In this document: piece by piece, positions 12,014-64,000 of the stretch | Layout of the letters: each line of letters begins with the position of its first letter | Position numbering within the stretch: the stretch's first letter is position 1 | Source: an uncultured Psychroserpens sp. | GTDB taxonomy: Bacteria; Bacteroidota; Bacteroidia; Flavobacteriales; Flavobacteriaceae | Assembly: GCF_947492715.1 (NCBI RefSeq) | Contig: NZ_CANLNS010000002.1 | Location: 464,040-528,039 of the forward strand | Direction of reading: 5' to 3' | DNA: 64,000 bases | Made by a program: the position numbers and the translations under genes | Notes under the pieces: generated by a model | Seen by the model: the letters and a program-made list of their open reading frames with translations, nothing else | Databases searched by the model: none | Told to the model about the DNA's origin: nothing

Positions 12014-12101
12014 GTTATAAATTTAAGATTTTAAAGTATTAAATCGTATATTTAATCTCTCCCTATAAATTTTTGCTTTCTGACGTATAAAATTTATTGC
12101 C

Positions 12102-13139: not shown

Positions 13140-13156
13140 CAATTTAACGCACACTT

Positions 13157-13180: not shown

Positions 13181-13217
13181 AATGCAACTGAATTATTAAT
13201 CCTAAAAATAAAATATT

Positions 13218-14153: not shown

Positions 14154-14163
14154 GTAAATGATA

Positions 14164-14295
14164 GCGGCTAACAACATGTATGATTAATTGGTTGTTCTTT
14201 ATGTATTCGGGAAATCCTACGGATTTCCCTTAGGTTGGTTTTCTTTTGCTAATTTCGTCCTAGCCAACGCAATCTGTATACAGCATAGAAGCTAA
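14164..14295 (+). repeat. attC-like site, partly decayed
   Basis: Left arm CGGCTAACAACATGTATGA, central hairpin GGAAATCC/GGATTTCC, core TTTTCTTTTGCTAATTTCG and CCAACGCAA are preserved. The right arm (CTGTATACAGCATAG) has drifted. Orientation is the same as the intact sites at 54-64 kb. Confidence 0.7.
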
Positions 14296-14360
14296 TTTTA
14301 AAAATTAGAGATCGTTTACGCATTCATGATGATTGAGCGATAGGTAGATTGAAAACAACA

Positions 14361-14382
14361 AAGCCATAGTGAACTATGGCTT
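14361..14382. terminator. Hairpin terminator candidate
   Basis: AAGCCATAG-TGAA-CTATGGCTT has a perfect 9-bp stem and a tetraloop. It lies 60 bases beyond the stop of the minus-strand T9SS gene. On that strand a U-rich run (TGTTGTTTTC) follows. Confidence 0.5.
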
Positions 14383-14444
14383 GTTTACGACTAACTTGAT
14401 TTTTGACCTTCTAGAGCTGGTTGAAACTTCTTAATTGTTCAGTT

Positions 14445-15419: not shown

Positions 15420-15476
15420 TTTTTTAGAATTTAAAATGGGCAATTCTAAATACAATTACTCTTATTATTAGCAATA

Positions 15477-17138
15477 TTAGTTACAGTTAAAATCAGCAGG
15501 TGTAAATACACTTTGAGTTTCAATAATATTATCTAAAATACTTGTTCCCCTTAACGTTACTCTTACAAAATTAGACCCAACTTCAGTAATTAATCCATTA
15601 AAGTTGTTCATCCTTAATTGCGTAACTAAATCAGCACCAGTAAGTGGTCCTAACACATTATTAGCATTAGCAGGATCAATTTGATCAGCAGTAATGATTA
15701 GTTGCTTTACAAATGGTATTCTCACATTTGAATACGATTGATAGGCATCATATACCAAGGAAGCACTTAAAGGCGGAACCGTTACTGTTCGTTCAAACGT
15801 AAATTCAACAGTTTCTTCAACAGTCTCTTCTTCGAACTGCGATTGAGATTCCGTAACTTCCTGCGAAAATCCATAAGAAGTTGTTGTTTCTCCACTAGCT
15901 GTGGCAGAACCACCAAAAAACTTTGCCTCTGCCTCTACACCTACGGTTACAGACACTTCTAAATCTTCTCGAGAGCTAATAGACAATGATTCTTCCCAAC
16001 CTACTGTACTTGACACAGTTTCAACTTCGTTAATCCCAACAACCTGTGACAAGCCTCCTTGAGTACAGTTTACCAAAGTACTATTAAAACCAAAATTTGA
16101 ATCTACCTCTGGAAACAAAGGAGAAAGATAATCTGTAGTTTCAACTTGTTGGGCGTTCCAGAAAAGATTTAATGCTATAATTCTAAAATATTGAATGGTT
16201 CCAGAATTGTTAGTATGCCAGTAGGTTTCACCGGCGTCAGTGTAACTTCTTATTACTTTATTATCTGCCATGCCTCTTATTACATATAGGCCATTATCTT
16301 CTTTAGTTATTTTAAACTTTAAATCTGCTCCAAGTACACTTGGATCTGTTGATGGATAAGAATATACACCTGATTGCGAAAATTGTCTTTGTGTATTACC
16401 AATTCTTAAATAACTATTGGTATGGTTGCTATATATTGCAAAAACATTTTCTTCATTCGGAAATTTATAAAAATAGTATTGGTGATTAGACCAAGATGCG
16501 TTAAATGTAGAAAAATCTCTTTTTAATTTGGTAAAGCTGTTACCTGCAGCGGATGGTTTCTCTACAACTTGATCACCATAATTTCCGTTTGCATCAACAG
16601 TTTGAAGAAAATGGGGCATATTTTCTTTAAAGCTAATTTCTTCTGTTAAAAATTGTAAATCAGAAGTATTAGGGATTATAGAAGTACCGTTTTCTAAAAA
16701 GTTAACGATGCTAAAAGATTCAGAAATAAGTTCTTGATTATTACTGTCTCTAACGATAATACTTAAAGGAATTCCATTTCGAAGTTCATTTTCTGCATCT
16801 TCCGATAAATCTTCGATGGCAATAGAGAGTTGCGCTACTTGTGTGAAGGGATCAACAGTTAATTCTTGATCATAATTACCGTGAACTGCATCTGTTTCAA
16901 GTGTAACCGTTGCAGGCGTATATCCTTTTTTTGCAATCGGTCTTGTATTAATTTTAAGGCCAATATCCCCAAGATAACTTTCGAGGTCATTAACAGAAAT
17001 TCCTGCTGTTTCTTGTAGTTCTCCATCTCCTGGTCCTGGTCCTTCGATAACATCTTCATCTTTGCTACATCCAATGATTAATAATAAAAAGGCTAAATAA
17101 ACTAATTTTCGAAACCCAATGTTAAATGTTGTTTTCAT
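15477..17138 (-). CDS. Lipoprotein with probable aerolysin-like pore-forming domain
   Basis: A 553-residue lipoprotein (lipobox LLLIIGCSKDED). Residues about 60-180 look like Ig-like beta domains. About 215-325 resembles a beta-trefoil or lectin-type region (SYLRIGNTQRQF, LKFKITKEDNGLYVIRG). About 360-520 has the aerolysin/ETX-MTX2 look: long Ser/Thr/Val/Glu-alternating strands (SVTVGVEAEAKFF, SATASGETTTSYGF), an EEETVEETVEF segment and then RTVTVPPLSASLVYDAYQ. This pattern typically marks the membrane-inserting hairpin and the strands around it. A lipid anchor on such a protein is unusual. The call rests on sequence pattern, not on a search. A role in predation or defence is inference. Confidence 0.55.
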   Translation of the reverse strand: MKTTFNIGFRKLVYLAFLLLIIGCSKDEDVIEGPGPGDGELQETAGISVNDLESYLGDIGLKINTRPIAKKGYTPATVTLETDAVHGNYDQELTVDPFTQVAQLSIAIEDLSEDAENELRNGIPLSIIVRDSNNQELISESFSIVNFLENGTSIIPNTSDLQFLTEEISFKENMPHFLQTVDANGNYGDQVVEKPSAAGNSFTKLKRDFSTFNASWSNHQYYFYKFPNEENVFAIYSNHTNSYLRIGNTQRQFSQSGVYSYPSTDPSVLGADLKFKITKEDNGLYVIRGMADNKVIRSYTDAGETYWHTNNSGTIQYFRIIALNLFWNAQQVETTDYLSPLFPEVDSNFGFNSTLVNCTQGGLSQVVGINEVETVSSTVGWEESLSISSREDLEVSVTVGVEAEAKFFGGSATASGETTTSYGFSQEVTESQSQFEEETVEETVEFTFERTVTVPPLSASLVYDAYQSYSNVRIPFVKQLIITADQIDPANANNVLGPLTGADLVTQLRMNNFNGLITEVGSNFVRVTLRGTSILDNIIETQSVFTPADFNCN

Positions 17139-53176: not shown

Positions 53177-53277
53177 CAATAGCTATAGTACATCATTTGT
53201 TTTAAAAAACTATGATTTAATTCGCACGATCACAACCTGCAAACAGGAACAAAACTTCCCGATTATGGGAAAATAAC

Positions 53278-53321
53278 ACCCAAAAACGTGTATATTTATC
53301 CTCATATAACACGTTGTAAGC
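53278..53321 (+). repeat. Short attC-like site (arms only)
   Basis: AAAACGTGTATA (53283-53294) and TATAACACGTTGTAAGC (53305-53321) face each other across about 12 bases, so the centre of the site is missing. GTT is at 53313-53315, and the following GTTGTAAGC is the perfect complement of GCTTACAAC that opens the next site at 54234. Confidence 0.7.
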
Positions 53322-53336
53322 AAGCTAAAAAAAACT

Positions 53337-54227
53337 ATGATAAACGAATTAATTACGGATATAGCATACGATAAAATAACAGTATCACAAGGTCTAACAA
53401 GAGCTAAATTAATTGCACGTCAGATAAAGAACGATACGTTTAAAAGTTGGTTAAACAAAGAATTAAATGGATATGACTATGAAGACCCATTAATGCCTGA
53501 ATACAGAAAAATATGGGCTGAAATTCATCTGACAGCGGAATTTCCTTTTGGTAGAACCCAATCTTTTCCTGTTGTCTTATCAGATGAGCAAAGAGATTTA
53601 GGAGAGTTATTAAATCACCATAGAGTTGTTGAACCAATTGCAATTGTTGAACAAAATATTGGACAAATGACAGAAGCAAAAGCCTATATTCATTTGAATG
53701 GAGGTATGGTTCAAACTGTTAGTGAACTCTACAAAGACCAAATGCAACAATATCAAGGAGTGATAAGAAGTGGACAAAGAACAATTGGTAAAGCTCAATT
53801 AACTAACATAGTGGAATTAACAAAGCAGAAGTTAATTGACACTTTACAAGATTTAGAAGAACAATTTCCTGATTTAGATAACAAATACGTTATGAACGAA
53901 GAAAACGATAAAAAAGCTCAAAACATTATAACTAATAATATTTATGGAAATAATAATCCATTAAATGTAGCCGCTGGAGAAAATATAACCCAAGGAGATA
54001 TAAATTTGACTATAAACGCTCAAGAGGTCGAAAAACTAAAAGAATTGGGTGTTGATGACGTAGCTTTAGAAGAACTACAAACAATAGACAAAGAAAATCC
54101 AAAAGGTTCAGAAGGCAGAAAAGGAAAAGTTGCGAGTTGGTTAGGTAGAGTCACAGCATCAATGACAGCAAAAGGATTATATGAGAATATACCTGAATTA
54201 GTCGAGTTTGTAGGTAACTTAATGTAA
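53337..54227 (+). CDS. AbiTii-domain abortive infection protein
   Basis: A 296-residue protein. Residues 1-185 match the AbiTii pattern: LITDIAYDKITVSQGLTRAK, WLNKELNGYDYEDPLMPEYR and then the paired helices around VELTKQKLIDTLQDLEEQFP. AbiTii was described in phage-resistance systems of lactococci. The middle (NNIYGNNNPLNVAAGENITQ) is a low-complexity linker often seen in such proteins, and the C-terminal part is a helical domain with a hydrophobic end, perhaps membrane-active. It is a complete cassette: its flanking core sites pair perfectly over nine bases. Confidence 0.78.
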   Translation: MINELITDIAYDKITVSQGLTRAKLIARQIKNDTFKSWLNKELNGYDYEDPLMPEYRKIWAEIHLTAEFPFGRTQSFPVVLSDEQRDLGELLNHHRVVEPIAIVEQNIGQMTEAKAYIHLNGGMVQTVSELYKDQMQQYQGVIRSGQRTIGKAQLTNIVELTKQKLIDTLQDLEEQFPDLDNKYVMNEENDKKAQNIITNNIYGNNNPLNVAAGENITQGDINLTINAQEVEKLKELGVDDVALEELQTIDKENPKGSEGRKGKVASWLGRVTASMTAKGLYENIPELVEFVGNLM

Positions 54228-54233
54228 AAGCCA

Positions 54234-54369
54234 GCTTACAACAACGTGTATAGTTAATTACTCGTTCTGTGTGTACTCGGAAAATCCTACGGATTTTCCT
54301 CTGGTTCGTTTTCTTTTGCTAACTTAGTTCTTGCCAACGCAACTAACCATACACAAACACGTTAGGTAC
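54234..54369 (+). repeat. attC-like site 1 (intact)
   Basis: AAC 54240-54242, GTT 54361-54363, 124 bp between. Arms CAACGTGTATAGTTAATTAC and CCATACACAAACACGTTAGG; stem GGAAAATCC/GGATTTTCC with loop TAC; core TGGTTCGTTTTCTTTTG-CTAACTTAGTTC; CCAACGCAAC before the right arm. Left flank GCTTAC pairs with GTAAGC after the previous GTT. Confidence 0.9.
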
Positions 54370-54554
54370 AATTGCAACTTCTCGCTCTTGTAACTTACTC
54401 ATACTCTCTTTACGTTTGCTTATTTCGGCGAAAACTGATTACTCAAAATTCCTTGCGTTAGCTCGTTTACTGCTTTATGTGCTTACTCTTGCTCACTTTA
54501 CCTTAGATTGGTTGTGGTAACACGTTCTTACTCTATTGTGTTGCAACAGTACAT
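54364..54554. other. Gene-less cassette, copy 1, with about 44-bp internal period
   Basis: No ORF of useful size. TTACTC recurs at 54395, 54439, 54483 and 54528, spacings 44, 44 and 45. Each unit continues with TC-rich bases and CTTTACGTTnGCTnnTT-like sequence in the first two. Period 44 is not a multiple of three, so coding is unlikely. Could be a promoter, structured RNA or protein-binding array. Confidence 0.7.
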
Positions 54555-54685
54555 AACAACGTGTATAGTTCATTGCTGGTTGTGTGTGTACTCGGAAAAT
54601 CCTACGGATTTTCCTCTGGTTCGTTTTCTTTTACTAATTTAGTTGCTAGCCAACGCAACTAACCATACACAAACACGTTAGGTAC
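54549..54685 (+). repeat. attC-like site 2 (intact)
   Basis: AAC 54555-54557, GTT 54677-54679. Left flank GTACAT pairs with AGGTAC after the previous GTT (5 of 6). Same stem and core as site 1, with ACTAATTTAGTTGC at the end of the core. Confidence 0.9.
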
Positions 54686-54870
54686 AATTGCAACTTCTCA
54701 CTCTTGTAACTTACTCATACTCTCTTTACGTTAGCTTATTTCGGCGAAAACTGATTACTCAAAATTCCTTGCGTTAGCTCGTTTACTACTTTATGTGCTT
54801 ACTCTTGCTCACTTTACCTTAGATTGGTTGTGGTAACACGTTCTTACTCTATTGTGTTGCAACAGTACAT
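54680..54870. other. Gene-less cassette, copy 2
   Basis: Nearly identical to the cassette at 54364-54554, 316 bases downstream, with the same four TTACTC motifs. No gene seen. Confidence 0.7.
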
Positions 54871-55000
54871 AACAACGTGTATAGTTCATTGCTGGTTGTG
54901 TGTGTACTCGGAAAATCCTACGGATTTTCCTCTGGTTCGTTTTCTTTTACTAATTTAGACCTAGCCAACGCAACTAACCATACACGAACACGTTAGCAAC
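54865..55000 (+). repeat. attC-like site 3 (intact)
   Basis: AAC 54871-54873, GTT 54992-54994. Right arm CCATACACGAACACGTTAGC. Flank after GTT is AGCAAC, pairing 5 of 6 with GTAGCT before the next AAC at 55737. Confidence 0.9.
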
Positions 55001-55003
55001 AAT

Positions 55004-55315
55004 TTGAGAAAAACTTTTGTCATACTAATAATATTAAGCATTTTGTCTTGTAAACAAAAAGACGAATGTTATCCTGAATTTAAAGAAAGTCTGAATTACA
55101 TTAAAGAATCTGTTGACCCAAATGTTAATGAATCACGATTGAGTATCGAAATACAACGAAATATCAAAGTTTTAGAATCAATCTCTGGCATTTTAAATAA
55201 AGATAGAGGACATAATTTTCTCAATATAATGAATATTTCTCAAAGTGATATTACTAAATGGGAAACGTGGATTTCAAAGAAATGTGATTCAATAAATCAA
55301 AAGAACTTAAAATAA
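55004..55315 (+). CDS. Small lipoprotein of unknown function
   Basis: A 103-residue lipoprotein starting with TTG ten bases after the attC-like site; the signal FVILIILSILSCKQKDECYP holds the lipobox. The remainder is helical (SRLSIEIQRNIKVLESISGI). No family recognised. It shares one cassette with the DUF4288 gene, which begins two bases after its stop. Confidence 0.7.
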   Translation: MRKTFVILIILSILSCKQKDECYPEFKESLNYIKESVDPNVNESRLSIEIQRNIKVLESISGILNKDRGHNFLNIMNISQSDITKWETWISKKCDSINQKNLK

Positions 55316-55317
55316 AA

Positions 55318-55734
55318 ATGAAATCCCAAGAAAGAATATCGAACGAAAACGGAAATTGGTATATCGTTGAGATTGTAGAAAAATGCGAGCCTGTAGAACG
55401 AAATGAAAAACAAGATTTACGTAAAGTTACTACATGGGGAAATCATCATCTGATTAAAGCCAGTTCACCGGAAAAGGCATTTGATAAAGCTGTGAAACTT
55501 GGAAAAGAAGGTGAATATATATTTACGAATTCTGACAAAGTTGAAATGGAATGGATATTCGTTGGAATTGGAGAGCTATTACCAATCTATGAAGAAAATA
55601 TAGAGGATGGAGCTGAAATAATGTGGAAAGATTACGGATTTATATCTGATAGACGAGCCAAACGGTTCGTTTTTGAAAAGAAAGAACTTTTAAGGGATAT
55701 TAAACCGAAACCTAAACTGAATAAAAAACTGTAG
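55318..55734 (+). CDS. DUF4288 domain protein
   Basis: A 138-residue cytoplasmic protein: NGNWYIVEIVEKCEP at the start, TTWGNHHLIKASSPEKAFDK, and EWIFVGIGELLPIYEENIED, the family blocks of DUF4288. The function is unknown; members are often found in immunity or mobile-gene settings. Its stop codon TAG (55732-55734) lies inside the left core site GTAGCTAAC of the following attC-like site. Confidence 0.8.
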   Translation: MKSQERISNENGNWYIVEIVEKCEPVERNEKQDLRKVTTWGNHHLIKASSPEKAFDKAVKLGKEGEYIFTNSDKVEMEWIFVGIGELLPIYEENIEDGAEIMWKDYGFISDRRAKRFVFEKKELLRDIKPKPKLNKKL

Positions 55735-55864
55735 CTAACAACGTGTATAATTAATGCTTGCTTTGTTTATTGCCAAAGTTTTCGCATCTTTATTCAACTG
55801 ATTTTCCTGCGGAAAATCAGCCGTGTGTTTGATCGCACTAACCATACACAAACACGTTAGGCAC
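55731..55864 (+). repeat. attC-like site 4 (variant centre)
   Basis: AAC 55737-55739, GTT 55856-55858. Arms are standard, but the centre is different: TTTGTTTATTGCCAAAG, TTTTCGCATC, and stem CTGATTTTCC-TGC-GGAAAATCAG. The usual GTTCGTTTTC core is missing. After GTT comes AGGCAC, perfectly complementary to GTGCCT before the next AAC. Confidence 0.88.
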
Positions 55865-55876
55865 AATTAAATAACC

Positions 55877-56545
55877 GTGAAAAAAGTACCAACATTTATT
55901 GAATTTATAGAATATATATGCAATAGACCAAGTATGTATAGTTTGCAAGGTTCTTTTAATGAAACATCTGCGTTTATAACTGGATATTCTTATGCTAAAA
56001 AAACACCAATTAGCAGAGGAACTGTATTCAATAGATTTGTTTGTCTGAAAAACTCTTTCCCAACAAATTATGATTGGACTTACGTCATTAAAATTTGCTC
56101 TGAAAATGATGATGAAGGAATTACGAATATGAAAAATACAATTCTTGAATTTATAGAATTGTCAAACCGATTGAACGAAGAAGAATTAATACAATTTGCT
56201 ATCAATAATGCTGATCTAAAAGAAGGTGAACCTGAAAAAGTATTTCGTGAATTCGATAATGCTTTATTATTTGGCAATAAAAAAATTATTCAATCCTTAA
56301 TTTTGGAAAACGACAATGCTGATTTATTATGGAATGGAAAGTATCCAGATTCTGTTGCAGAGAAATTAAATGAATTATCGAATAATCAACCTATAAAAAG
56401 AATTAAGGAATCTGAAGATGGAAAATCGGTTGAAATAATTGCATCTGGTTGGCCATTTTCTATTGAACTGCTTTTAAAAAATGACAAGTGGAAAGTAAAT
56501 GCTGATAAAATAATTGAATTAAGAACTGAAAATAACAGTGCCTAA
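55877..56545 (+). CDS. Protein of unknown function in a perfectly bounded cassette
   Basis: A 222-residue soluble protein starting with GTG (GTGAAAAAAGTACC). FIEFIEYICNRPSMYSLQGS is an N-terminal helix region, TFNRFVCLKNSF-like residues follow, and the C-terminal part SVEIIASGWPFSIELLLKND is beta-rich. The N-terminal block resembles uncharacterised proteins of immunity type, but I cannot name the family. Its TAA stop overlaps the AAC of the next site; the cassette ends match over all nine compared bases. Confidence 0.7.
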   Translation: MKKVPTFIEFIEYICNRPSMYSLQGSFNETSAFITGYSYAKKTPISRGTVFNRFVCLKNSFPTNYDWTYVIKICSENDDEGITNMKNTILEFIELSNRLNEEELIQFAINNADLKEGEPEKVFREFDNALLFGNKKIIQSLILENDNADLLWNGKYPDSVAEKLNELSNNQPIKRIKESEDGKSVEIIASGWPFSIELLLKNDKWKVNADKIIELRTENNSA

Positions 56546-56674
56546 CAACGTGTATAATTAATAGCTCTTCTGTGCGTACTCGGAAAATCCTGCGGATTTT
56601 CCTCTGGTTCGTTTTCTTTTGCTAACTTAGTTCCTAACCAACGCAACGAAATCATACACAAACACGTTACAAGC
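56538..56674 (+). repeat. attC-like site 5 (intact)
   Basis: AAC 56544-56546, GTT 56666-56668, stem GGAAAATCC-TGC-GGATTTTCC, core TGGTTCGTTTTCTTTTG-CTAACTTAGTTCC, CCAACGCAACG. Left flank GTGCCT is the exact complement of AGGCAC at 55859. Confidence 0.92.
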
Positions 56675-56869
56675 AATTGCTCATTCTCACTCAAACTCAA
56701 TTTATCTACTTACTTATACTCTCTGTACGTTAGCTAGTGTCTGGCAATACGCACTTACTCAAATAGCAAAACGTGAGCTACTTACAACTAAATGTGATTA
56801 CTCTTGCTCGTTTATTCCTAGCGTCCTTGAGGCAATACGTGTTTACTCTTCTGTTTCGCAACAGCATAT
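56669..56869. other. Gene-less cassette, diverged copy
   Basis: No gene. TTACTT/TTACTC motifs at 56710, 56755, 56798 and 56843, spacings 45, 43 and 45, match the period of the cassettes at 54.4-54.9 kb although much of the sequence differs. Shared segments include TATACTCTCTGTACGTTAGC and ATTACTCTTGCTCG. The beginning is identical to the sequence at 63944-64000. Confidence 0.7.
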
Positions 56870-56997
56870 AACAACGCGTATAGTTCATTGCTCGGAAATT
56901 CCTATCGGAATTTCTGTCGCTTCTGAACAATGGGTTCGCTCCTATTTGCTATCTTAGTGCAGACGCAACGAAACCATACACGAACACGTTGTACAAC
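56864..56997 (+). repeat. attC-like site 6 (variant centre)
   Basis: AAC 56870-56872, GTT 56988-56990, left arm AACGCGTATAG. Stem CGGAAATTCC-TAT-CGGAATTTC, core GGGTTCGCTCCTATTTGCTA followed by TCTTAGTGC. After GTT the flank GTACAAC pairs completely with the next left flank. Confidence 0.88.
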
Positions 56998-57003
56998 ATT
57001 TGA

Positions 57004-57549
57004 ATGAAACGAATATTAACAATCATATTTTTACTTCTAATTTTCAATTTATCAAATTCTCAACAGTCAGATAGAGTTAAAGAAATAGTAAAAGAACTCA
57101 AAGAGGTCGAATCTAAACCTGATACTATTTTTTATGGAAACGGAAAAATTTGGTGGAAAAGCACTTTAACAACTTATAATTACAATTCAGAAACTTTCTC
57201 TCTTTATACTGGAGAGCAAATACAATATTATAAAAATGGTAAAATTGCTAACGAATCAATATATGATAAATATGGTAATCTACTATCTTGGAACGGATAT
57301 GATAGAGATGGAAATAAAACAATTGAATCTGTGACTACCGAAATTGACTCAAATGCTAAAAATCTGATTGAATTTTTTGAATCTGAAAAACATATTACTT
57401 TTAAAAGAGATGTTAAGTACTATAAATGCTCAAACAAACTCGGGATTTGCTATTTGTATAAAGAAGGGCAAACCATAAACGGAAAGAAAAGTGGGATTTG
57501 GAAATTTTATAAAGAAAACGGAGATCTAAAAAAGGAAAAAAGGTATTGA
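57004..57549 (+). CDS. Exported YwqK/MORN-variant repeat protein
   Basis: A 181-residue exported protein (signal LTIIFLLLIFNLSNSQ). Repeated YYKNGKI- and WKFYKENGDLK-type units (YGNGKIWWKSTL, TGEQIQYYKNGKIANE, GKKSGIWKFYKENGDL) are the YwqK-like MORN-variant repeats. Such proteins have been called antitoxin components in Firmicutes, but those of Flavobacteria are usually of unknown role. Single-gene cassette. Confidence 0.82.
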   Translation: MKRILTIIFLLLIFNLSNSQQSDRVKEIVKELKEVESKPDTIFYGNGKIWWKSTLTTYNYNSETFSLYTGEQIQYYKNGKIANESIYDKYGNLLSWNGYDRDGNKTIESVTTEIDSNAKNLIEFFESEKHITFKRDVKYYKCSNKLGICYLYKEGQTINGKKSGIWKFYKENGDLKKEKRY

Positions 57550-57559
57550 ATATAAAAAC

Positions 57560-57697
57560 GTTGTACAACAACGTGTATAATCAATTGCTTGATTATCGCT
57601 TACTCGGAAAATCCTACGGATTTTCCTCAGGTTCGTTTTCTTTTACTAATTTAGTTACTTACACACGCAACTAACCATACACGAACACGTTGTATGC
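57560..57697 (+). repeat. attC-like site 7 (intact)
   Basis: AAC 57567-57569, GTT 57689-57691. Left flank GTTGTAC and the flank after GTT at 56988 form a perfect pair over 10 bases. Stem and core standard, with TTTTACTAATTTAGTTAC. Confidence 0.92.
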
Positions 57698-57724
57698 AAT
57701 TTGAGAAAAATCTGAATTTGAAAA

Positions 57725-58255
57725 ATGGAATATAGAATTGGTGATTTTTATGATGGAAAAATAGGTAACTATAAACTGAAAAAGGAATATATCTTTTCAT
57801 ATTCTTTTTCACCTGGACTTTATAACAAATTGTGTAAAATAAATCTTTTTGTAAAGAGCAATTTGACTTATGAATTATTTCTGTTTTTCTATGACCAAAA
57901 CCAACAGAGTTTGGAATCATTAAAAGAAAATCCTAGAGAGGCTAGAATTCATTTTTATCAAGAAAGCAAATTACCTTTTGCCATAAAGCAAACTTTATTG
58001 GAAATTGTAAATCCTGAATTCCATTTAAATGATTCGTATTATAATTCAAAAAATACTTTTGGAATGTTAGACAGGACTTCCATTAATGCTGAGATAAATC
58101 AGGAGAAAAAATACTTTTCAATTGATTTGAGTCTAGACACATTAGATAAGAATTTATTTAAGACAGAATCTGAATTAAACTTTTTAAAGCTAATAGAACG
58201 AACAGAAGATTTTTTAGAAAAAATAAGAGACTTCCACATGGGAACTTATGAATAA
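57725..58255 (+). CDS. Protein of unknown function
   Basis: A 176-residue soluble protein. It opens with YRIGDFYDGKIGNYKLKKEY, and the middle (LTYELFLFFYDQNQQSLESL) and C terminus (ESELNFLKLIERTEDFLEKI) are helical. It may bind another protein; no motif is recognised. Single-gene cassette between attC-like sites 7 and 8. Confidence 0.68.
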   Translation: MEYRIGDFYDGKIGNYKLKKEYIFSYSFSPGLYNKLCKINLFVKSNLTYELFLFFYDQNQQSLESLKENPREARIHFYQESKLPFAIKQTLLEIVNPEFHLNDSYYNSKNTFGMLDRTSINAEINQEKKYFSIDLSLDTLDKNLFKTESELNFLKLIERTEDFLEKIRDFHMGTYE

Positions 58256-58260
58256 AAACT

Positions 58261-58397
58261 GCACACAACAACGTGTATAGTAAATTGCTAGTTTTGTGTG
58301 TACTCGGAAAATCCTACGGATTTTCCTCTGGTTCGTTTTCTTTTGCTAACTTAGTTCTTGCCAACGCAACTAACCATACACGAACACGTTGTGCCTA
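58261..58397 (+). repeat. attC-like site 8 (intact)
   Basis: AAC 58267-58269, GTT 58388-58390, 124 bp. Left flank GCACAC pairs 5 of 6 with GTATGC after the previous GTT; the flank after its GTT, GTGCCTA, is fully complementary to TAGGCAC before the AAC at 61904, across three genes. Confidence 0.92.
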
Positions 58398-58424
58398 ATT
58401 ATAACAAATATTTTCACATAATTA

Positions 58425-59165
58425 ATGAATAGAATAAAAACATCCTTTAAACCTAACTTTCTTATTTCTCTAATGATTAGTAGTTGGTTATTTCTTTTCA
58501 CAGTTCTTATCAAACCTTTTCAGCTTGAACCTTTAATAAATTCAAGATGGATAACTATGGCATTAGGATATAGTATAATTGCTTTGTTTGGTTATCTAAC
58601 ACTTATTCCGCTACAGAATAAAATTTTCACGAAGGCTAATAAATGGAATTTAAAATATGAATTTATAATTTTTCTTCTCTTCTTTCTATTAACACTAATT
58701 CCTAGTTATTTATACCATAAGAGTGATTTTACAAACGGAATCTATAATTTCTTTGAGTTTAGTATCAATATTTTTCTTCCAACTATTATTATTTTAACAC
58801 CTATAATAATAGTTGCAAGAATACATCTAATAAAGTTAGTTGATAAAACAGAAGACTTTATTATAATAAATGGAACTTATAAATTAGACTATTTAAAAAT
58901 TAAGCCTGCAAATTTAGTTTGTGTTTCAAGTTCAAAAAACTACGTTGACATTTATTATTTGAATAATGGAATTTTAACAAAAAAAGTGATTCGAGCTTCA
59001 CTTAAAAAAATTGAAAAAGAAGTACCATTACTAACAAGAGTTCATCGTTCTCATCTAATAAACCCTAATCATTTTCTATCTTGGAAAAACAACAATACAC
59101 TTTCATTAACTCAAATTGAAATCCCGATAACTAAAACTTTTAAAGAAGGCATAAAGCCTTTTTGA
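58425..59165 (+). CDS. Membrane-bound LytTR regulator
   Basis: A 246-residue protein. Four hydrophobic helices (residues 15-135: FLISLMISSWLFLFTVLIKP, ALGYSIIALFGYLTLIP, FIIFLLFFLLTLIPSYLY, LPTIIILTPIIIVARI) are followed by a LytTR DNA-binding domain (ANLVCVSSSKNYVDIYYLNN, then RASLKKIEKEVPLLTRVHRS and INPNHFLSWKNN). It has no receiver domain, so signal input is through the membrane part. It probably controls the serine hydrolase and TlpA-like genes downstream, all within one cassette. Confidence 0.9.
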   Translation: MNRIKTSFKPNFLISLMISSWLFLFTVLIKPFQLEPLINSRWITMALGYSIIALFGYLTLIPLQNKIFTKANKWNLKYEFIIFLLFFLLTLIPSYLYHKSDFTNGIYNFFEFSINIFLPTIIILTPIIIVARIHLIKLVDKTEDFIIINGTYKLDYLKIKPANLVCVSSSKNYVDIYYLNNGILTKKVIRASLKKIEKEVPLLTRVHRSHLINPNHFLSWKNNNTLSLTQIEIPITKTFKEGIKPF

Positions 59166-59258
59166 TTTCGTACCTAAAACACCATAATTAGTAACTATAG
59201 AAATAATTTAAAGTTATTAATTGATTAGCATTGGTAAATTGCCTCCAAAAATTTATCA

Positions 59259-60725
59259 ATGCAAAAACAGAAATTATTTAAAGTTATATTTTATCCTATA
59301 CTTTTTCTAACTGTATACGGATGCAATAAAAAAGAAACCAATATTAGAACTCTTTTAGGAACAAATATTTCTCAAAAAACAACAGATAATTTCATTGATA
59401 ACCAAATGAAAATACTGAATATGCCAGCTTTATCTATTGCAATTATCAATAACGGAGAAGTCGTTTATCAAAGCATAAAAGGGTATGCAGATAAAGATAA
59501 AAAAATATTAGCTAATAATAAATCAATATTTGAAGGAGCATCTGTCTCAAAATCAGTTTTTGGTTTTTTTGTAATGACTTTAGTTGAAGACGGCATACTT
59601 GATTTAGACAAACCTCTTTACAAATACCTGTCAAATCCTGATATTGAAAACGATGAGCGCTATAAAAAAATAACGGCAAGAATGGTGCTTTCGCATCGTT
59701 CTGGGTTCCCAAATTGGCGTGATGATTACTCTAAAAAGAAACTTTTCATTCAATTTGAACCTGGAACCGATTATCATTATTCTGGAGAAGGTTACCAATA
59801 TTTGGCAGAAGTTCTAAAACATCTTTTAAACACTAATTGGGCAGGTTTGGAAAAAGAATTTCAAAAAAGAGTGGCAATACCATTTGAAATGGAACATACC
59901 AAATTCATAAAGGATGATTACATAAGAGAATATAAAGTTCGACCTTATGACAAAAATGGTAACTTGATTGATAAAGATAAAGATGAATGGTGGAAAAGTA
60001 GAGATTCTGTTTTTGTCGCACCAACGACTATACATTCAGAAGCAATTGACTTTTCTAAATGGATGATTGCAATGATGAATAAAGAAGGATTATCCGAAAA
60101 TGGATTTGATGAACTTTACAAATCACATTCAGAAATTAGTGACGGACTTTTAAAGGAAGATTATACTTTAGGGTTTAGCAAACTATCAATTCTTAACCTC
60201 AGTGAGTTGTTTTCTCACAGCGGAAATAATACTGGATTTTCTTCTTACTTTACGTTTGATAAAGACAAAAAATGGGGTTTCGTTTTCTTTACGAATTCCA
60301 AAGCTGGAGACCAATTTGCCTTAAACCTTACGTATAATTTATTATTATCTGGAACAATTGGAAAACAAATTGCTATTGGACTTACATTATTTTTTTCTAC
60401 AATACTATTAATTACAAACCTAATTCTTGTCTTTTTAAAAAAATCAAAAATGCTAAAAATACGACAATCTAATCTTGGAATTGGACTAATAGTCTGTATG
60501 TTTATAGTAATATCTTTGATTTTTATGCTTACTGTAAACTATGGGGTCATAATTTATTTGTATCCTTTAACAGTTTTACTTGCTCTATTTTTAAGTTTCA
60601 GAATATTTAATTCGATTATCAAACATTGGAGAGAAAATAAAGGCAGAAAGACTGAATTAGTCTTTCAAACAATATTTCTTATAAGTGTTCTGATTTCAGG
60701 AATTACAGTAGGAATTTTACAATAA
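59259..60725 (+). CDS. Serine hydrolase lipoprotein with C-terminal membrane helices
   Basis: A 488-residue protein with a lipobox-like start (FLTVYGCNKKE). The class C beta-lactamase-type core has SVSK in FEGASVSKSVFGFF, YSG in YHYSGEGYQYL (instead of YxN), and HSG in LFSHSGNNTGFSS. Residues about 365-488 form four membrane helices (QIAIGLTLFFSTILLITNLI, LIVCMFIVISLIFMLTVNYG and others). The layout resembles hydrolases fused to transport-like helices. Substrate unknown. A TlpA-like gene follows. Confidence 0.88.
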   Translation: MQKQKLFKVIFYPILFLTVYGCNKKETNIRTLLGTNISQKTTDNFIDNQMKILNMPALSIAIINNGEVVYQSIKGYADKDKKILANNKSIFEGASVSKSVFGFFVMTLVEDGILDLDKPLYKYLSNPDIENDERYKKITARMVLSHRSGFPNWRDDYSKKKLFIQFEPGTDYHYSGEGYQYLAEVLKHLLNTNWAGLEKEFQKRVAIPFEMEHTKFIKDDYIREYKVRPYDKNGNLIDKDKDEWWKSRDSVFVAPTTIHSEAIDFSKWMIAMMNKEGLSENGFDELYKSHSEISDGLLKEDYTLGFSKLSILNLSELFSHSGNNTGFSSYFTFDKDKKWGFVFFTNSKAGDQFALNLTYNLLLSGTIGKQIAIGLTLFFSTILLITNLILVFLKKSKMLKIRQSNLGIGLIVCMFIVISLIFMLTVNYGVIIYLYPLTVLLALFLSFRIFNSIIKHWRENKGRKTELVFQTIFLISVLISGITVGILQ

Positions 60726-60764
60726 ATAACTTGCCACAACATTATGAAAAACAAATTAAATATC

Positions 60765-61895
60765 ATGAAAAACAAATTACTATTATTAATCTTTTTAGGA
60801 ATTTCAATTCTTTTCAACTCTTGTAAACAAAAGCAGGAAGAATTTAATATTTCTGCAGAAATAACTGGTTTTGAAGATAACTCAAAAGTCATTGTTTCCG
60901 ATAGAATTACAGGTAAAATTTTAGATTCAACTACTATTATTAAAAACAATTTTACATTAAAGGGCATTCTTGATAATGCGCCTACTGATTTAAGTTTAGT
61001 AATAACTTCAAGTGCTGACAAAGATAACTTATATTCATCATTCTTTATTGGTAATGAAAACGTAAAAATTTCTGGTGATAAAAGTAACTTTAAAGATAAC
61101 TTAAAAATTACTGGCTCTAAACACAATAAGTTTAAAGTTGAACTAGATAATCTATTGAATCATTTGTCTAAAGAGAGAAGCAAGAAAGTACAAAAAATGT
61201 TTTCGTTAAGGAATGAAGGGAAATGGAATGATAGCTTACATCAAGCATATTGGGGAAAAAATGGAACTATAAGACAAATTGATGCTCAAATTTTCGAAAA
61301 GCGAAAGACATTTATTTCCAAAAACATCAATTCTGATTATGCTCTTTCACAACTTGTAACCTATAAGAATGATTTTTCTAAAGAGTTTGTAAATGAACAA
61401 ATTAGTAAACTAAACTCTACTTTTAAAAACACAGAATATGTAAATGTAATTAATACAGCAATAAATACGCAACAGCTAAAAATAAATGATAAATTTTACA
61501 ATTTTAGTGCTGAAAACATTAACGGAAATAGAGTGTCATTTGCTGATTTTTTTGATAAAAAGTATGTTCTTCTTGAGTTTTTCTCTCCTTATTGTGGTAT
61601 TTGTTTAGGAGCCTTACCCGAAATTAAGAAAATTGCTCACAATAATAAATTAGATGTTATAAGTTTATATGTAGATAAAAGTAAAGAAGACTGGATTGAA
61701 CATATTGAAAAGGAAAATATAGATTGGGTTAGTTTATGGATTGACAAGGGAAGGTATAGTGATGCTTATTCGAAGTATCATATAACAGGAACACCAACAT
61801 ATTACTTATTTGATAAAAATGGGGTTTTAGTCAAGAAATGGGTTGGGTGGTACGGAAAAGAGTTTAGAACTCAATTAAATGAGCTTATGAAATAA
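60765..61895 (+). CDS. TlpA-like thioredoxin lipoprotein with DUF4369-type N domain
   Basis: A 376-residue lipoprotein (LLLIFLGISILFNSCKQKQE). I prefer ATG 60765; another ATG seven codons upstream gives a duplicated MKNKL. Residues 25-130 look like DUF4369 (ISAEITGFEDNSKVIVSDRI, then DNLYSSFFIGNENVKISGDK). The C-terminal domain is a thioredoxin with YVLLEFFSPYCGICLGALPE, redox site CGIC, and TGTPTYYLFDKNGVLVKKW. It would handle disulfides in the periplasm, and it forms a pair with the serine hydrolase gene upstream. The stop is nine bases from AAC. Confidence 0.9.
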   Translation: MKNKLLLLIFLGISILFNSCKQKQEEFNISAEITGFEDNSKVIVSDRITGKILDSTTIIKNNFTLKGILDNAPTDLSLVITSSADKDNLYSSFFIGNENVKISGDKSNFKDNLKITGSKHNKFKVELDNLLNHLSKERSKKVQKMFSLRNEGKWNDSLHQAYWGKNGTIRQIDAQIFEKRKTFISKNINSDYALSQLVTYKNDFSKEFVNEQISKLNSTFKNTEYVNVINTAINTQQLKINDKFYNFSAENINGNRVSFADFFDKKYVLLEFFSPYCGICLGALPEIKKIAHNNKLDVISLYVDKSKEDWIEHIEKENIDWVSLWIDKGRYSDAYSKYHITGTPTYYLFDKNGVLVKKWVGWYGKEFRTQLNELMK

Positions 61896-61896
61896 C

Positions 61897-62035
61897 TAGG
61901 CACAACAACGTGTATAGTTCATTGCTTCCGACTTTCCTTTCGGAAAGTCCTCGCGGACTTTCTATCTGTGATTTATTTGCTAAATTAGTTGCTTAAACAC
62001 GCAACGAAATCATACACAAACACGTTGTAAAACAT
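61897..62035 (+). repeat. attC-like site 9 (variant centre)
   Basis: AAC 61904-61906, GTT 62024-62026. Centre: stem GACTTTCC-TTT-CGGAAAGTC followed by a third arm CTCGCGGACTTTC; core GATTTATTTGCTAAATTAG. The flank after GTT, GTAAAACAT, is the perfect complement of ATGTTTTAC before AAC at 63418 (12 of 12 with GTT/AAC). Confidence 0.9.
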
Positions 62036-62053
62036 TAGAACGAAATTCTAGAA

Positions 62054-62986
62054 ATGAAAAAAAATCCGAAAATATTTTCAATTTTAATCACACTAATCAT
62101 ATCTGTGATTTTAGGATATATAGAAATTGGAATTTTTAAAGAATATGGTTGGACTGTATTTCTTGTAATTCCATTAATAACTGGATTTCTTCCACCTTTT
62201 ATTAATGGAAAATTATCGAAAATAAGTAAAAAAGAAAGTTATAAATTAAGTTTTCTAACACTCGGAATTGTTTTAATTGGACTTTTGATTTTTGCAATTG
62301 AAGGAATGATTTGTATTGCAATGTCTTTACCTTTAATCGCTTTATTAGTTTGGCTTGGTTCTTATTTAGGATTTAAAGCAAACTCAGGAAAGTGGATAAA
62401 TCCGACAAATACAACAATTGGACTTCTTATTATTTGCGCAAGTTCAATGAGTTTCGACTATATAAATGAACCTGAAAACTTAATTCCTGTTAGAACGAAA
62501 ATTATTGTTAACTCTAATATAGAGAATGTTTGGAAAAACGTTGTGACTTTTGACAAAATAGACGAACCAGCTGACTGGATTTTTAAAACGGGAATATCAT
62601 ATCCAACAGACGCAACTATTAAAGGAACTGGAGTTGGAGCAATAAGATATTGTAATTTTACAACTGGTAGTTTTGTAGAACCAATCACAACTTGGAACGA
62701 ACCAAATTTATTACAATTTGACGTAAAAGAACAACCAATTCCTATGAATGAATTCAATCCATTTTGGGAAATTCATCCTCCACATTTAGATGGTTATTTC
62801 AAGTCTTATAAAGGTCAATTTAAATTAATCAAACTTGGAGAAAATCAAACTGAATTAGAAGGAACAACTTGGTATAAAGTAGATATTACACCAGAAATTT
62901 ACTGGAAAACTTGGTCTGATTTTATAATTCACAGAATACATAAACGAGTATTGAATCATATCAAAATAGAAACTGAAAATAAATAA
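62054..62986 (+). CDS. Membrane protein with C-terminal SRPBCC domain
   Basis: A 310-residue protein. Four to five hydrophobic helices (residues 8-135: FSILITLIISVILGYIEIGI, FLTLGIVLIGLLIFAIEGMI) are followed by a helix-grip domain (KIIVNSNIENVWKNVVTFDK, then LLQFDVKEQPIPMNEFNPFW and YKGQFKLIKLGENQTELEGT). The soluble part would bind a lipid-like ligand near the membrane. It and the next gene share one cassette. Confidence 0.82.
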   Translation: MKKNPKIFSILITLIISVILGYIEIGIFKEYGWTVFLVIPLITGFLPPFINGKLSKISKKESYKLSFLTLGIVLIGLLIFAIEGMICIAMSLPLIALLVWLGSYLGFKANSGKWINPTNTTIGLLIICASSMSFDYINEPENLIPVRTKIIVNSNIENVWKNVVTFDKIDEPADWIFKTGISYPTDATIKGTGVGAIRYCNFTTGSFVEPITTWNEPNLLQFDVKEQPIPMNEFNPFWEIHPPHLDGYFKSYKGQFKLIKLGENQTELEGTTWYKVDITPEIYWKTWSDFIIHRIHKRVLNHIKIETENK

Positions 62987-63017
62987 CGTTTAACAACAAC
63001 TCTAAAATAGAATATAA

Positions 63018-63431
63018 ATGAGAATTAAAAACGGAGTTTTTCCATACTTTTTTATAGGACTTTGGTCCATTATTTTTGGTATTGGGTTGATAACCATGTA
63101 TTCAAGAAACGGGTTAATAAGAATTTTTGGAAACTTGAACGAAAGAAACACAATTAATTCTTTACCTTTTTTGATAATAGGAATTCTCGTTCTAATATTA
63201 TTTTTATCAAACTTGATTTTTACATATTGGATAAAAGATTATAGAGACAAAATAATAATTAGAAATGTATTTAAGCAAAAAGAAATCAATTGGAATGAGA
63301 TATCTAAAATTGAAACTTTGAAGTGGATAAACTTATCTCAAATCTCTATTATTAAAACCAAATCAAACAAAAAGTATTTTGTTCACTGTCAATATAAAAA
63401 CCTAAAAGATGTTTTACAACAACGTCGCTAA
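63018..63431 (+). CDS. Small membrane protein, PH-like tail
   Basis: A 137-residue protein with two helices (FFIGLWSIIFGIGLITM, FLIIGILVLILFLSNLIF) and a C-terminal soluble part (IIIRNVFKQKEINWNEISKI, then ISIIKTKSNKKYFVHCQYKN) that looks like a small bacterial PH-type barrel. The last codons (VLQQRR) are encoded by the left half of the following short attC-like site. Function unknown. Confidence 0.68.
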   Translation: MRIKNGVFPYFFIGLWSIIFGIGLITMYSRNGLIRIFGNLNERNTINSLPFLIIGILVLILFLSNLIFTYWIKDYRDKIIIRNVFKQKEINWNEISKIETLKWINLSQISIIKTKSNKKYFVHCQYKNLKDVLQQRR

Positions 63432-63456
63432 CTAATATTTTAAAATATAGTTAAGC
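63409..63456 (+). repeat. Truncated attC-like site (left arm)
   Basis: ATGTTTTACAACAACGTCGC with AAC 63418-63420, overlapping the 3' end of the upstream gene. GTTAAGC at 63450-63456 is a consensus-like right core site (GTTRRRY), but its flank does not match the next left flank (TTTCAC). The centre is missing. Confidence 0.6.
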
Positions 63457-63474
63457 AATTAATAAAATGAAATA

Positions 63475-63843
63475 TTGAAAAAGATCCAAAAAAAATACGT
63501 TAGAAATTATTATGCAATTGCAATCTTAATAAATGTAGTTCTACCTGTTTTATCAATGATTTATGTAATAGGAAATCGGAAAGGAGAAGCCCAAATGGGA
63601 TACTTCATAATTGGGATTTGGGGATTGATTTGTATTTTTGTTTATTCTATTTACTTTGCAATACCAGATTTTAATAAAAATTGGGAAAAAGTAGCGGGTC
63701 TTTTATTTCCCACAATTCTATTGAGCTTAGCGCTCATAAAATATTGGAATTTTGCTCTTGTAATTTTATTAAATTTAATTATGAACGGTTTTTTTATCTG
63801 GCATCTGACAAAGAAAACGTTTCACAACAACGTGTATAATTAA
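63475..63843 (+). CDS. Small four-helix membrane protein
   Basis: A 122-residue protein starting with TTG. Four hydrophobic segments: AIAILINVVLPVLSMIYVI, YFIIGIWGLICIFVYSIYFA, VAGLLFPTILLSLALI, FALVILLNLIMNGFFIWHL. The last six codons (HNNVYN) are formed by the attC-like site CACAACAACGTGTATAATTAA, so the stop codon is provided by the repeat. Function unknown. Confidence 0.68.
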   Translation: MKKIQKKYVRNYYAIAILINVVLPVLSMIYVIGNRKGEAQMGYFIIGIWGLICIFVYSIYFAIPDFNKNWEKVAGLLFPTILLSLALIKYWNFALVILLNLIMNGFFIWHLTKKTFHNNVYN

Positions 63844-63952
63844 TTGCTGGTTTGTGTACTCGGAAAATCCTACGGATTTTCCTCTGGTTCGTTTTCTTTT
63901 GCTAACTTAGTTCCAGCCAACGCAACTAACCATACACGAACACGTTACAAGC
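63819..63952 (+). repeat. attC-like site 10 (intact)
   Basis: AAC 63826-63828, GTT 63944-63946. Stem GGAAAATCC/GGATTTTCC, core TGGTTCGTTTTCTTTTG-CTAACTTAGTTCC, CCAACGCAACTAACC and right arm CATACACGAACACGTTAC. Confidence 0.92.
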
Positions 63953-64000
63953 AATTGCTCATTCTCACTCAAACTCAATTTATCTACTTACTTATACTCT
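63947..64000. other. Start of another gene-less cassette (cut by window end)
   Basis: From the GTT on, the sequence is identical to that at 56666-56722 (ACAAGCAATTGCTCATTC onward, to TACTTACTTATACTCT), so a fourth copy of the non-coding cassette begins here and continues beyond the window. Confidence 0.75.

What the first reader, a model, noticed from the sequence alone, without database searches (positions are those of the whole stretch)
53278..64000. Integron-type cassette array in a Bacteroidota genome: flanks pair across each cassette, not across each repeat
Seen directly: repeats of about 125 bp with invariant left AAC and right CACGTT separate the genes. The bases before AAC complement the bases after the GTT at the other end of the same gene segment: GTTGTAAGC/GCTTACAAC (53313, 54234), GTTAGGCAC/GTGCCTAAC (55856, 56538), GTTGTACAAC/GTTGTACAAC (56988, 57560), GTTGTGCCTA/TAGGCACAAC (58388, 61897), GTTGTAAAACAT/ATGTTTTACAAC (62024, 63409), with 7 or 8 of 9 in the others. 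Known: integron cassettes are excised and inserted at G^TT of attC, which puts TTRRRY at the cassette start and its RYYYAAC complement at the cassette end. No other element I know gives this pattern. The single-direction run of unrelated small genes also fits. Integrons are mostly described from Proteobacteria and a few other phyla, so a large one in Flavobacteriaceae would be notable. The flanks often deviate from strict GTTRRRY (for example GTTGTAC).
Basis: partly seen in the sequence, partly recalled or inferred. Interest (0 to 1): 0.94.

Follow-up and report, generated by a model that had tools for sequence, protein, structure and literature searches.

The report
Integron-like gene cassettes without classical integrase
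This Flavobacteriaceae genome carries long arrays of gene cassettes built like an integron's, next to a recombinase that lacks the domain held essential in integron integrases and that likely moves the cassettes by recognising a folded single DNA strand; sites of the same kind occur in most Flavobacteriaceae genomes sampled.

Summary
The window holds 10 full repeats (121-125 bp); the two ends of each cassette pair, not the two flanks of each repeat. The fetched stretches hold 54 such sites on five contigs. A PF00589 search finds three tyrosine recombinases in the genome; one sits at an array head, in the same orientation, with an attI-like sequence behind its stop codon. A 71-bp copy of that sequence heads the window array.

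The recombinase is not an IntI: it lacks the I2 insertion (57 residues where IntI has 99-100) and scores 203 bits against a cut-off of 265. It belongs to a Bacteroidota group placed beside IntI in trees. Mispairs of the L stem are mostly of the kind that pairs on the bottom strand only (48 against 8, one fixed column left out), and its first 10 bp show no extrahelical base.

A single-contig congener carries 283 sites over 266 kb; copies of one cassette place the exchange point within CGTT. Sites occur in 130 of 149 sampled Flavobacteriaceae.

Best reading: a working integron analogue, likely single-strand based, run by an I2-less enzyme. No recombination was tested. Ten searches of the held open library found no description of it.

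The parts
53245..53315 (+). attI-like site without its recombinase (copy of the 3' end of the recombinase gene plus the insertion point); head of the window array
   Evidence: 71 bp, 2 mismatches to the sequence behind the recombinase on contig C11; related core ATATAa..GTT-N7-A behind the recombinase in 49 of 75 loci against 2 of 790 control segments
53316..54239 (+). cassette 1: AbiTii-family gene (53337-54227)
   Evidence: PF18864 81 bits, PADLOC AbiTii 90.8 bits; ends match 6 of 7
54240..54363 (+). attC-like site 1
54364..54554 (+). cassette 2, no ORF found of 60 aa or more; copies in C2 (two), C5 and C11
54555..54679 (+). attC-like site 2
54680..54870 (+). cassette 3, near-identical copy of cassette 2
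   Evidence: 99% identity over 300 nt
54871..54994 (+). attC-like site 3
54995..55736 (+). cassette 4: two ORFs (55004-55315; 55318-55734, DUF4288)
55737..55858 (+). attC-like site 4
55859..56543 (+). cassette 5: ORF 55877-56545, no Pfam match
56544..56668 (+). attC-like site 5
56669..56869 (+). cassette 6, no ORF found of 60 aa or more; near-identical copy on contig C5
56870..56990 (+). attC-like site 6
56991..57566 (+). cassette 7: ORF 57004-57549, MORN-like (below Pfam's cut-off)
57567..57691 (+). attC-like site 7
57692..58266 (+). cassette 8: ORF 57725-58255, no Pfam match
58267..58390 (+). attC-like site 8
58391..61903 (+). cassette 9, three genes: LytTR regulator (58425-59165), PF00144 serine-hydrolase family (59259-60725), thioredoxin-like (60744-61895)
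61904..62026 (+). attC-like site 9
62027..63825 (+). cassette 10, a fusion: ORFs 62054-62986, 63018-63431 and 63475-63843, with a decayed site remnant at 63418
   Evidence: 7 of 7 end match to the decayed site; ORFs
63826..63946 (+). attC-like site 10
63947..64000 (+). start of cassette 11, cut by the contig end; same as the start of cassette 6
   Evidence: 100% identity over 54 bases

Best explanation
[quoted passage not shown] Shown from sequence: cassettes in one direction; ~125-bp sites; cassette ends complementary over GTT plus 11 bases; better pairing on the bottom strand; an attI-like sequence behind the recombinase; copies of the same cassette with exact ends in different places, which confines the exchange point to CGTT. 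Inferred: that this recombinase does the exchange; that the substrate is single-stranded; that a circular cassette re-forms a full R stem from its own two ends; that new cassettes enter at the attI-like site. The enzyme lacks the I2 helix that docks extrahelical bases in IntI, and the sites show no such base in the first 10 bp of the L stem, so enzyme and site seem to differ from integrons together.
For: Recombinase: three PF00589 matches in the genome; two fit XerD and XerC best, the third (C11:2556-3470 minus) heads an array in the same orientation. In 80 related loci the sites lie behind the recombinase and on its strand: cassette-end pairs 77 downstream same-strand, 1 downstream opposite, 5 and 5 upstream in 592 kb; structural grammar without a fixed L sequence 107 downstream, 4 downstream opposite, 12 upstream; of 129 covariance-model hits at E<=0.1, 128 downstream. 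Contigs end within 8 kb downstream only in 46 loci, upstream only in 2. Bottom strand: L-stem mispairs that pair only on the bottom against only on the top strand, one fixed column left out, are 48 and 8 (53 distinct own sites), 261 and 4 (222 G007 sites, both arms picked by motif), 120 and 8 (105 G007 sites, right arm picked without L letters); 96.9% of stem cells paired on the bottom, 86.1% on the top; double-sided changes in 5 pairs, 0 of 500 shuffles as high. Exchange point. Array scale: 283 sites over 266 kb; 265 ORFs forward, 14 reverse in the 280 kb fetched. Missing I2. Co-occurrence in 149 genomes: 92 both, 5 recombinase only, 38 sites only, 14 neither (Fisher p 0.0004).
Against: No excision, insertion or circular cassette was observed. 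38 of 149 genomes have sites without a recombinase at E<=1e-50, and 5 the reverse. 12 of 40 family loci with over 1.5 kb of downstream sequence gave no cassette-end pair. The L-stem grammar finds no sites in the Flavobacterium terrisoli locus that plainly holds repeats, so the bottom-strand polarity is shown only for the own genome and G007. Minimum-energy folds often take another register than the R/L one used here, and 14 of 54 sites fold as well or better on the top strand. In the array the R arms of one site do not pair with each other, so excision would have to use a partly unpaired R box or pairing across the cassette. The shuffles do not allow for relatedness of the sites. The promoter expected in attI is weak evidence (17 of 55 exact).
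Confidence: 0.8

Rival explanations
1. The same recombinase moves the cassettes, but by ordinary double-strand exchange between duplex sites, as Xer proteins do at dif; the hairpin potential is a by-product of two inverted binding sites.
For: The enzyme has no I2 helix and lies near archaeal Xer proteins in fold and profile; the attI-like core ATATAAC..GTT could serve as a duplex site.
Against: Mispairs of the L stem are mostly of the kind that pairs on one strand only (48 against 8, 261 against 4, 120 against 8); cassette ends stay complementary for 11 bases, with a bottom-only wobble at base 8; duplex recombination would need matching overlaps between neighbouring sites, but the bases after GTT differ from cassette to cassette.
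Confidence: 0.2
2. A true integron served by a classical IntI that is missing from the assembly or was lost, the nearby recombinase being incidental.
For: Contigs break at the arrays, so a gene could be missing; arrays without integrase are known in integrons.
Against: 0 of 149 Flavobacteriaceae genomes reach the IntI cut-off (the tool warned that its controls did not ring either, but a real IntI1 scores 506 against 265 and three further family members 202-209). The single-contig genome G007 has the family recombinase directly before 283 sites. The sites also miss GTTRRRY.
Confidence: 0.04
3. Dispersed intergenic repeats (palindromic or MITE-like elements) between unrelated genes, with no cassette movement.
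For: About 125-bp imperfect palindromes recur between genes.
Against: Repeat elements do not make the ends of the enclosed gene segment complementary; units of gene plus repeat are copied with exact ends; single orientation and a head with a recombinase.
Confidence: 0.02

Closest known systems
Integrons (IntI / attI / attC), including sedentary chromosomal integrons such as that of Vibrio cholerae
   Same: Cassettes of gene plus site in one direction, R and L boxes, pairing across the cassette, exchange at GTT, bottom-strand polarity, attI next to the recombinase, arrays of hundreds of sites (V. cholerae about 180 cassettes: PMC8191803, passage read).
   Different: No I2 insertion in the recombinase, no extrahelical base in the first 10 bp of the L stem, no GTTRRRY consensus, 11 rather than 4 paired bases beyond GTT (R boxes are heptamers: PMC2727003, passages). 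Recombinase and cassettes point the same way (in class 1 integrons they point apart; recalled).
CTXphi-type integration by host XerC/XerD (single-strand hairpin that mimics dif; PMC4792948 and PMC7790495, passages read)
   Same: An I2-less, Xer-type enzyme acting on a folded single strand whose stem has no extrahelical bases would be mechanistically alike.
   Different: Here a recombinase heads its own array of cassettes; CTXphi encodes none and borrows XerC/D.
Integron-like subgroup of simple tyrosine recombinases (Smyshlyaev et al. 2021, PMC8138268, passages read) and NCBIfam NF040815 'site-specific tyrosine recombinase/integron integrase'
   Same: The recombinase scores 216.6 bits to NF040815 (cut-off 220; five relatives 199 to 231), and NCBI already gives that name to some relatives. 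The paper says that the insertion is not fully conserved in its integron-like subgroup, so members without it are known as proteins.
   Different: The passages read and the model do not link such members with cassette arrays in Bacteroidota; the paper calls the insertion essential for integron function. Whether the present protein falls in that subgroup was not tested.

Membership tests
Integron | Array of cassettes, each a gene plus one recombination site, in one orientation | tested here: met
   Window and own genome; 265 forward against 14 reverse ORFs in 280 kb of G007. Some cassettes have no ORF of 60 aa or more
Integron | Tyrosine recombinase adjacent to the array head | tested here: met
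   Own C11, G007, many of 80 loci; the window's own array has only an attI copy
Integron | IntI-specific I2 domain near patch III | tested here: not met
   57-58 residues between patch II and HxLRH in 42 of 42 family rows, 99-100 in 10 of 10 IntI, 59-65 in 5 of 5 Xer
Integron | Integrase above the curated IntI profile cut-off (TIGR02249, 265 bits) | tested here: not met
   203.4 bits; IntI1 control 506.3
Integron | attI next to the integrase gene | tested here: met
   Conserved core within 260 bp of the stop in 49 of 75 loci (strict pattern) against 2 of 790 control segments; insertion there is inferred
Integron | R boxes RYYYAAC / GTTRRRY | tested here: not met
   AAC and GTT kept by the way the sites were picked; RRRY after GTT in 6 of 54 and 20 of 249 sites
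Integron | Bottom-strand hairpin with R and L stems | tested here: met
   In silico only: 96.9% of stem cells paired, covariation above all 500 shuffles, mispair polarity
Integron | Extrahelical bases in the L stem | tested here: not met
   First 10 bp only, ungapped: 514 of 530 cells (53 own sites) and 994 of 1050 (105 G007 sites picked without L letters) pairable on the bottom strand; the inner part of the stem was not examined
Integron | Exchange within GTT | tested here: met
   Unit boundaries of repeated cassettes lie within CGTT
Integron | Pc promoter reading into the first cassette | tested here: inconclusive
   Exact TAnnTTTG (Bacteroidota -7 box, recalled) before the core in 17 of 55 loci
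Integron | Integrase-mediated excision and insertion of circular cassettes | not testable with these tools
   Needs an experiment
Integron | SOS control of the integrase | not tested
   No LexA-box search was made
Xer/dif or pdif modules | Action of the host XerC/XerD pair on 28-bp dif-like sites | not tested
   XerC- and XerD-like proteins are present, but no dif search was made; the sites are 121-272 nt with a recombinase at the array head
NF040815 site-specific tyrosine recombinase/integron integrase | Score above 220 bits | tested here: inconclusive
   Own protein 216.6, just under; relatives P0063 231.3, L097 227.8, L126 221.5 above; P0113 208.2, L047 199.2 below

The most novel reading that the evidence does not exclude
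Integrons as known are one branch of an older class of cassette systems: folded single-strand cassette recombination existed before the I2 domain, survives in an I2-less lineage beside IntI that dominates Flavobacteriaceae (with an array larger than the Vibrio cholerae superintegron), and I2 with its extrahelical bases was a later refinement and not the origin of single-strand recombination.
Probability: 0.4. Interest if true: 0.96.

Novelty: new variant of a known kind. Interest (0 to 1): 0.9.

Why it matters
Published work holds that integron integrases became able to recombine single strands by gaining I2, and says that a direct proof is not available because deleting I2 destroys IntI1 (PMC7790495, also PMC4792948; passages read). 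An I2-less relative that heads cassette arrays makes the question directly testable. IntegronFinder, as PMC9668308 describes it (passage), asks for the I2 profile to call an integrase, so by that method this recombinase would not count; whether its attC model would find the sites was not tested. IntegronFinder 2.0 names one complete integron in Bacteroidetes proper, in Salinibacter ruber M1 (PMC9024848, passage), while sites of the kind seen here occur in 130 of 149 sampled Flavobacteriaceae genomes of 148 genera. If the arrays are active, most of a large bacterial family has a gene-capture system that the searches made here found nowhere described, with a large stock of unknown genes and at least one defence-family gene (AbiTii).

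Tried and rejected
Rfam at gathering thresholds: no match in the window. Viral contigs with the recombinase alone: no relative. Alternative register AACGTGT/ACACGTT for the stem: it fits the own genome nearly as well (346 of 371 cells pairable on the bottom strand, against 514 of 530 for the chosen one); in G007 it is worse (267 of 1554 cells unpairable, 15 more pairing on the top strand only), but those sites were picked by motifs of the chosen register. The choice rests on sites with changed L boxes, such as GGCTAT/ATAGCC and GTATAT/ATATAC. My first count of mispairs (99 against 8 and 483 against 4) held a column that is A-C in nearly every site and that the G007 pattern itself demanded; one search leaves it out and adds a pick without L letters. 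A strict sister relation of the family to IntI, seen with 57 rows, did not hold in this form with 67 rows: phage and alphaproteobacterial recombinases fall among the family (92/79, not starred), while these plus the family and IntI plus phage IntI still form one group (99/99), and the insertion (97-100 residues) is confined to the IntI side; in that tree the three XerC/D rows do not form one side of a branch, so its root is unsure. Eight relatives of that side (seven viral, one alphaproteobacterial) showed no cassette-end pairs downstream; one further, partial one (L184) showed two. A Chryseobacterium plasmid with a family member has four 282-nt repeats, but their left ends did not fit the cassette rule. 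Exact promoter boxes in attI: weak. In-frame TAG flagged in weaker relatives: in the two flagged ones that I read (L145, L147) it is the normal end of the gene; two other loci printed there (L135, L146) were read on the wrong strand and say nothing. Similarity to 50,697 phage records: relatives of about 31 to 35% identity among the 20 listed; not followed.
Full report
WHAT IS THERE. The window is the end of contig C2 (464040-528039) of a 4.2-Mb, 41-contig genome. From 53245 to the contig end it holds an attI-like sequence, ten repeats of 121-125 bp and eleven cassettes (the last cut); the longest ORFs of the coding cassettes are all on the + strand, with shorter ORFs on the other strand inside some of them. 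The same repeats lie on contigs C5 (294-333 kb), C7 (1 to about 33 kb), C11 (first kb) and C3; C2, C5, C7 and C11 each end inside or close to an array. In the stretches fetched I count 54 sites with both arms and 47 cassettes between neighbouring sites; single right-arm matches elsewhere were not counted. There are two array heads: the window, and C11. How the pieces join is not known.

CASSETTE ENDS PAIR. In the own genome the two ends of a cassette match 6.21 of 9 bases against 3.34 (s.d. 0.21) by permutation; the two flanks of one repeat match 3.33. Base by base over 43 distinct cassettes, bases 1-7 after GTT pair in 230 of 301 cells against about 111 expected; base 8 is A opposite C in 41 of 43, a fixed pair that forms (T-G) only on the bottom strand; at bases 9, 10 and 11 Watson-Crick pairs stand in 39, 37 and 36 of 43; from base 12 on the counts are near expectation. 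In G007, a single-contig genome of the same genus, 189 distinct cassettes repeat this: 164 to 182 of 189 at bases 1-6, 113 at base 7, A-C in 165 at base 8 (again fixed letters, so no covariation), 132 to 167 at bases 9-11. That a cassette's ends are complementary is a known property of integrons (recalled; the R boxes are described in PMC2727003, passages); the length is not.

THE SITE. The paired elements are AAC/GTT and a 10-bp L stem GTGTATARTT/AAYCATACAC, with spacers of 3 and 6 bases. In 38 sites (37 distinct) 96.9% of the stem cells are paired on the bottom strand, with double-sided changes in 5 pairs (15 cells), reached by none of 500 shuffles, a control that does not allow for relatedness; on the top strand 86.1%. 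Mispairs have one polarity. One column is A-C in 51 of 53 own sites. Leaving it out, mispairs that pair only on the bottom or only on the top strand number 48 and 8 in 53 own sites, 261 and 4 in 222 G007 sites picked by motifs of both arms, and 120 and 8 in 105 G007 sites whose right arm was picked by cassette-end pairing without using L letters. Minimum-energy DNA folds favour the bottom strand in 40 of 54 sites (mean -19.4 against -17.8 kcal/mol; mean z of the bottom strand -2.6); these folds often choose another register, so the register rests on the changed L boxes. The L stem pairs without a gap over its first 10 bp (514 of 530 own cells; 994 of 1050 in the G007 pick without L letters), so it shows no extrahelical base there; integron attC sites have two or three (PMC2727003).

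PHYLOGENY. With 57 rows, 42 Bacteroidota proteins form one group (99/92) next to IntI (joint group 97/87), XerA and XerC/D outside. With 67 rows, including phage and alphaproteobacterial enzymes, the joint group holds (99/99); on one side all six IntI rows plus nine phage proteins, all with the insertion (97-100 residues); on the other (92/79, not starred) the 25 family rows plus nine others, without it (50-58 residues, one of 78). XerC/D do not form one side of a branch in this tree, so the root is unsure. The simplest reading is one gain of I2 on the IntI branch; whether cassettes are older than that or arose twice is open.

SAME ARCHITECTURE ELSEWHERE. Exact 7-base complementary ends: 77 pairs downstream on the recombinase's strand, 1 on the other strand, 5 and 5 upstream in 592 kb; 28 of the 40 loci with more than 1.5 kb downstream have at least one. 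A structural grammar without a fixed L sequence, set after seeing the own sites: 107 downstream, 4 downstream on the other strand, 12 upstream. A covariance model of 38 own sites: 129 hits at E<=0.1 in 36 of 80 loci, 128 of them downstream; all have the same orientation. The contig ends within 8 kb downstream only in 46 loci and upstream only in 2, as arrays that break assemblies would do. Flavobacterium terrisoli (L097), from the more distant clade, has ten repeats of another sequence with the same end rule.

PREVALENCE. In 23 genomes of the genus, own included, 21 have the recombinase (E<=1e-60). In 149 Flavobacteriaceae genomes of 148 genera, own included: sites in 130 (E<=1e-4; at most 23 candidates per genome were scored), recombinase in 97 (E<=1e-50), both in 92, recombinase only in 5, sites only in 38, neither in 14 (Fisher p 0.0004). 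In 247 genomes of the phylum 47 have sites by this model (at most 14 candidates scored), which is tuned to the window's clade. IntI over its cut-off: 0 of 149 (with the tool's warning that no control rang; IntI1 itself scores 506).

A LARGE ARRAY. G007 (one contig, 4.03 Mb) has the recombinase at 1836588-1837484 and then 283 model hits (E<=0.01), all in one orientation, from 1838279 to 2104529; I fetched 1826001-2106000 only. ORFs of 80 aa or more in that stretch: 265 forward, 14 reverse. The V. cholerae superintegron has about 180 cassettes (PMC8191803).

PAST MOVEMENT AND THE EXCHANGE POINT. Among 285 units of G007 and the own genome, 428 near-identical full-length pairs fall into 19 clusters; a cluster of 27 copies supplies most of the pairs. 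Identity is at or near 1.00 inside, except at bases 5 to 7 before the right end (0.64 to 0.88), and falls to 0.51 and 0.30 at the first two bases after the unit's own GTT. In G007, 242 units are 187 distinct cassettes; 17 of these are multi-copy, with 72 copies. Clusters of 9 and 6 copies keep their own right tail (9 of 9, 6 of 6) while the following bases change, and keep their own first bases while the preceding tail changes. The boundary therefore lies in CGTT. In the 27-copy cluster the bases 5 to 7 before the boundary vary among copies, which I do not explain. The window's 316-bp cassette-plus-site occurs twice there, on C11 and on C5.

ATTI. Behind the recombinase stop, ATATAa..GTT-N7-A occurs in 49 of 75 loci against 2 of 790 control segments; a looser pattern, not run on controls, gives 55, and exact TAnnTTTG precedes it in 17 of the 55. 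The window array starts with a 71-bp copy of the own sequence, two mismatches, including the last codons of the recombinase: an attI-like site without integrase.

HOW IT LIKELY WORKS (inferred). A cassette's bottom strand folds; its two ends form a 14-bp R stem and its site an L stem. The recombinase binds these as a pseudo-duplex and exchanges the strand at GTT with attI or another site. Without I2 it cannot dock extrahelical bases as IntI does; polarity may come from the wobbles and the 3:6 spacer. How the second strand exchange is avoided is open.

LITERATURE. Ten full-text searches of the held PMC library gave no report, in the listings, of cassette arrays with an I2-less recombinase in Bacteroidota. 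Preprints and most subscription papers were not searchable. I read passages only, of the papers named; PMC4889954 was not held.

Noticed in passing
window 53245-53315: An attI-like sequence with the last codons of the recombinase gene but no recombinase heads a second array; how it was copied is unknown.
   Followed up: partly
window 54364-54554, 54680-54870 and 56669-56869: Cassettes of about 200 bp with no ORF of 60 aa or more, repeated in several arrays; role unknown.
   Followed up: partly
window 63418-63436: Remnant of a decayed site inside cassette 10, which fuses two former units.
   Followed up: yes
window 53337-54227: The first cassette behind the attI copy encodes an AbiTii-family (abortive infection) protein.
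   Followed up: partly
G007:C1:1838279-2104529 (L152-L165): One cassette is present in 27 near-identical copies, others in 9, 6 and 4; bases 5-7 before the exchange point vary among the 27 copies.
   Followed up: partly
L126 (Chryseobacterium sp. SNU WT5 plasmid): A plasmid carries a family recombinase followed by mostly same-direction genes and four 282-nt repeats; a mobile form is possible, but the ends did not fit the cassette rule.
   Followed up: partly
P0013, P0022 and other relatives: Many relatives carry an extra N-terminal stretch of about 80-90 residues (length about 390) that the own protein lacks.
   Followed up: no
L097 (Flavobacterium terrisoli), 8700-16813: Repeats of a different sequence (AACAGCGGTTTGGCG..CACGTT) with the same cassette-end rule; strand polarity there was not measured.
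   Followed up: partly
L184 (viral contig): A recombinase fragment 61% identical to the Flavobacterium-type query, with two cassette-end pairs downstream; may be a phage-borne or host-contaminant array.
   Followed up: no
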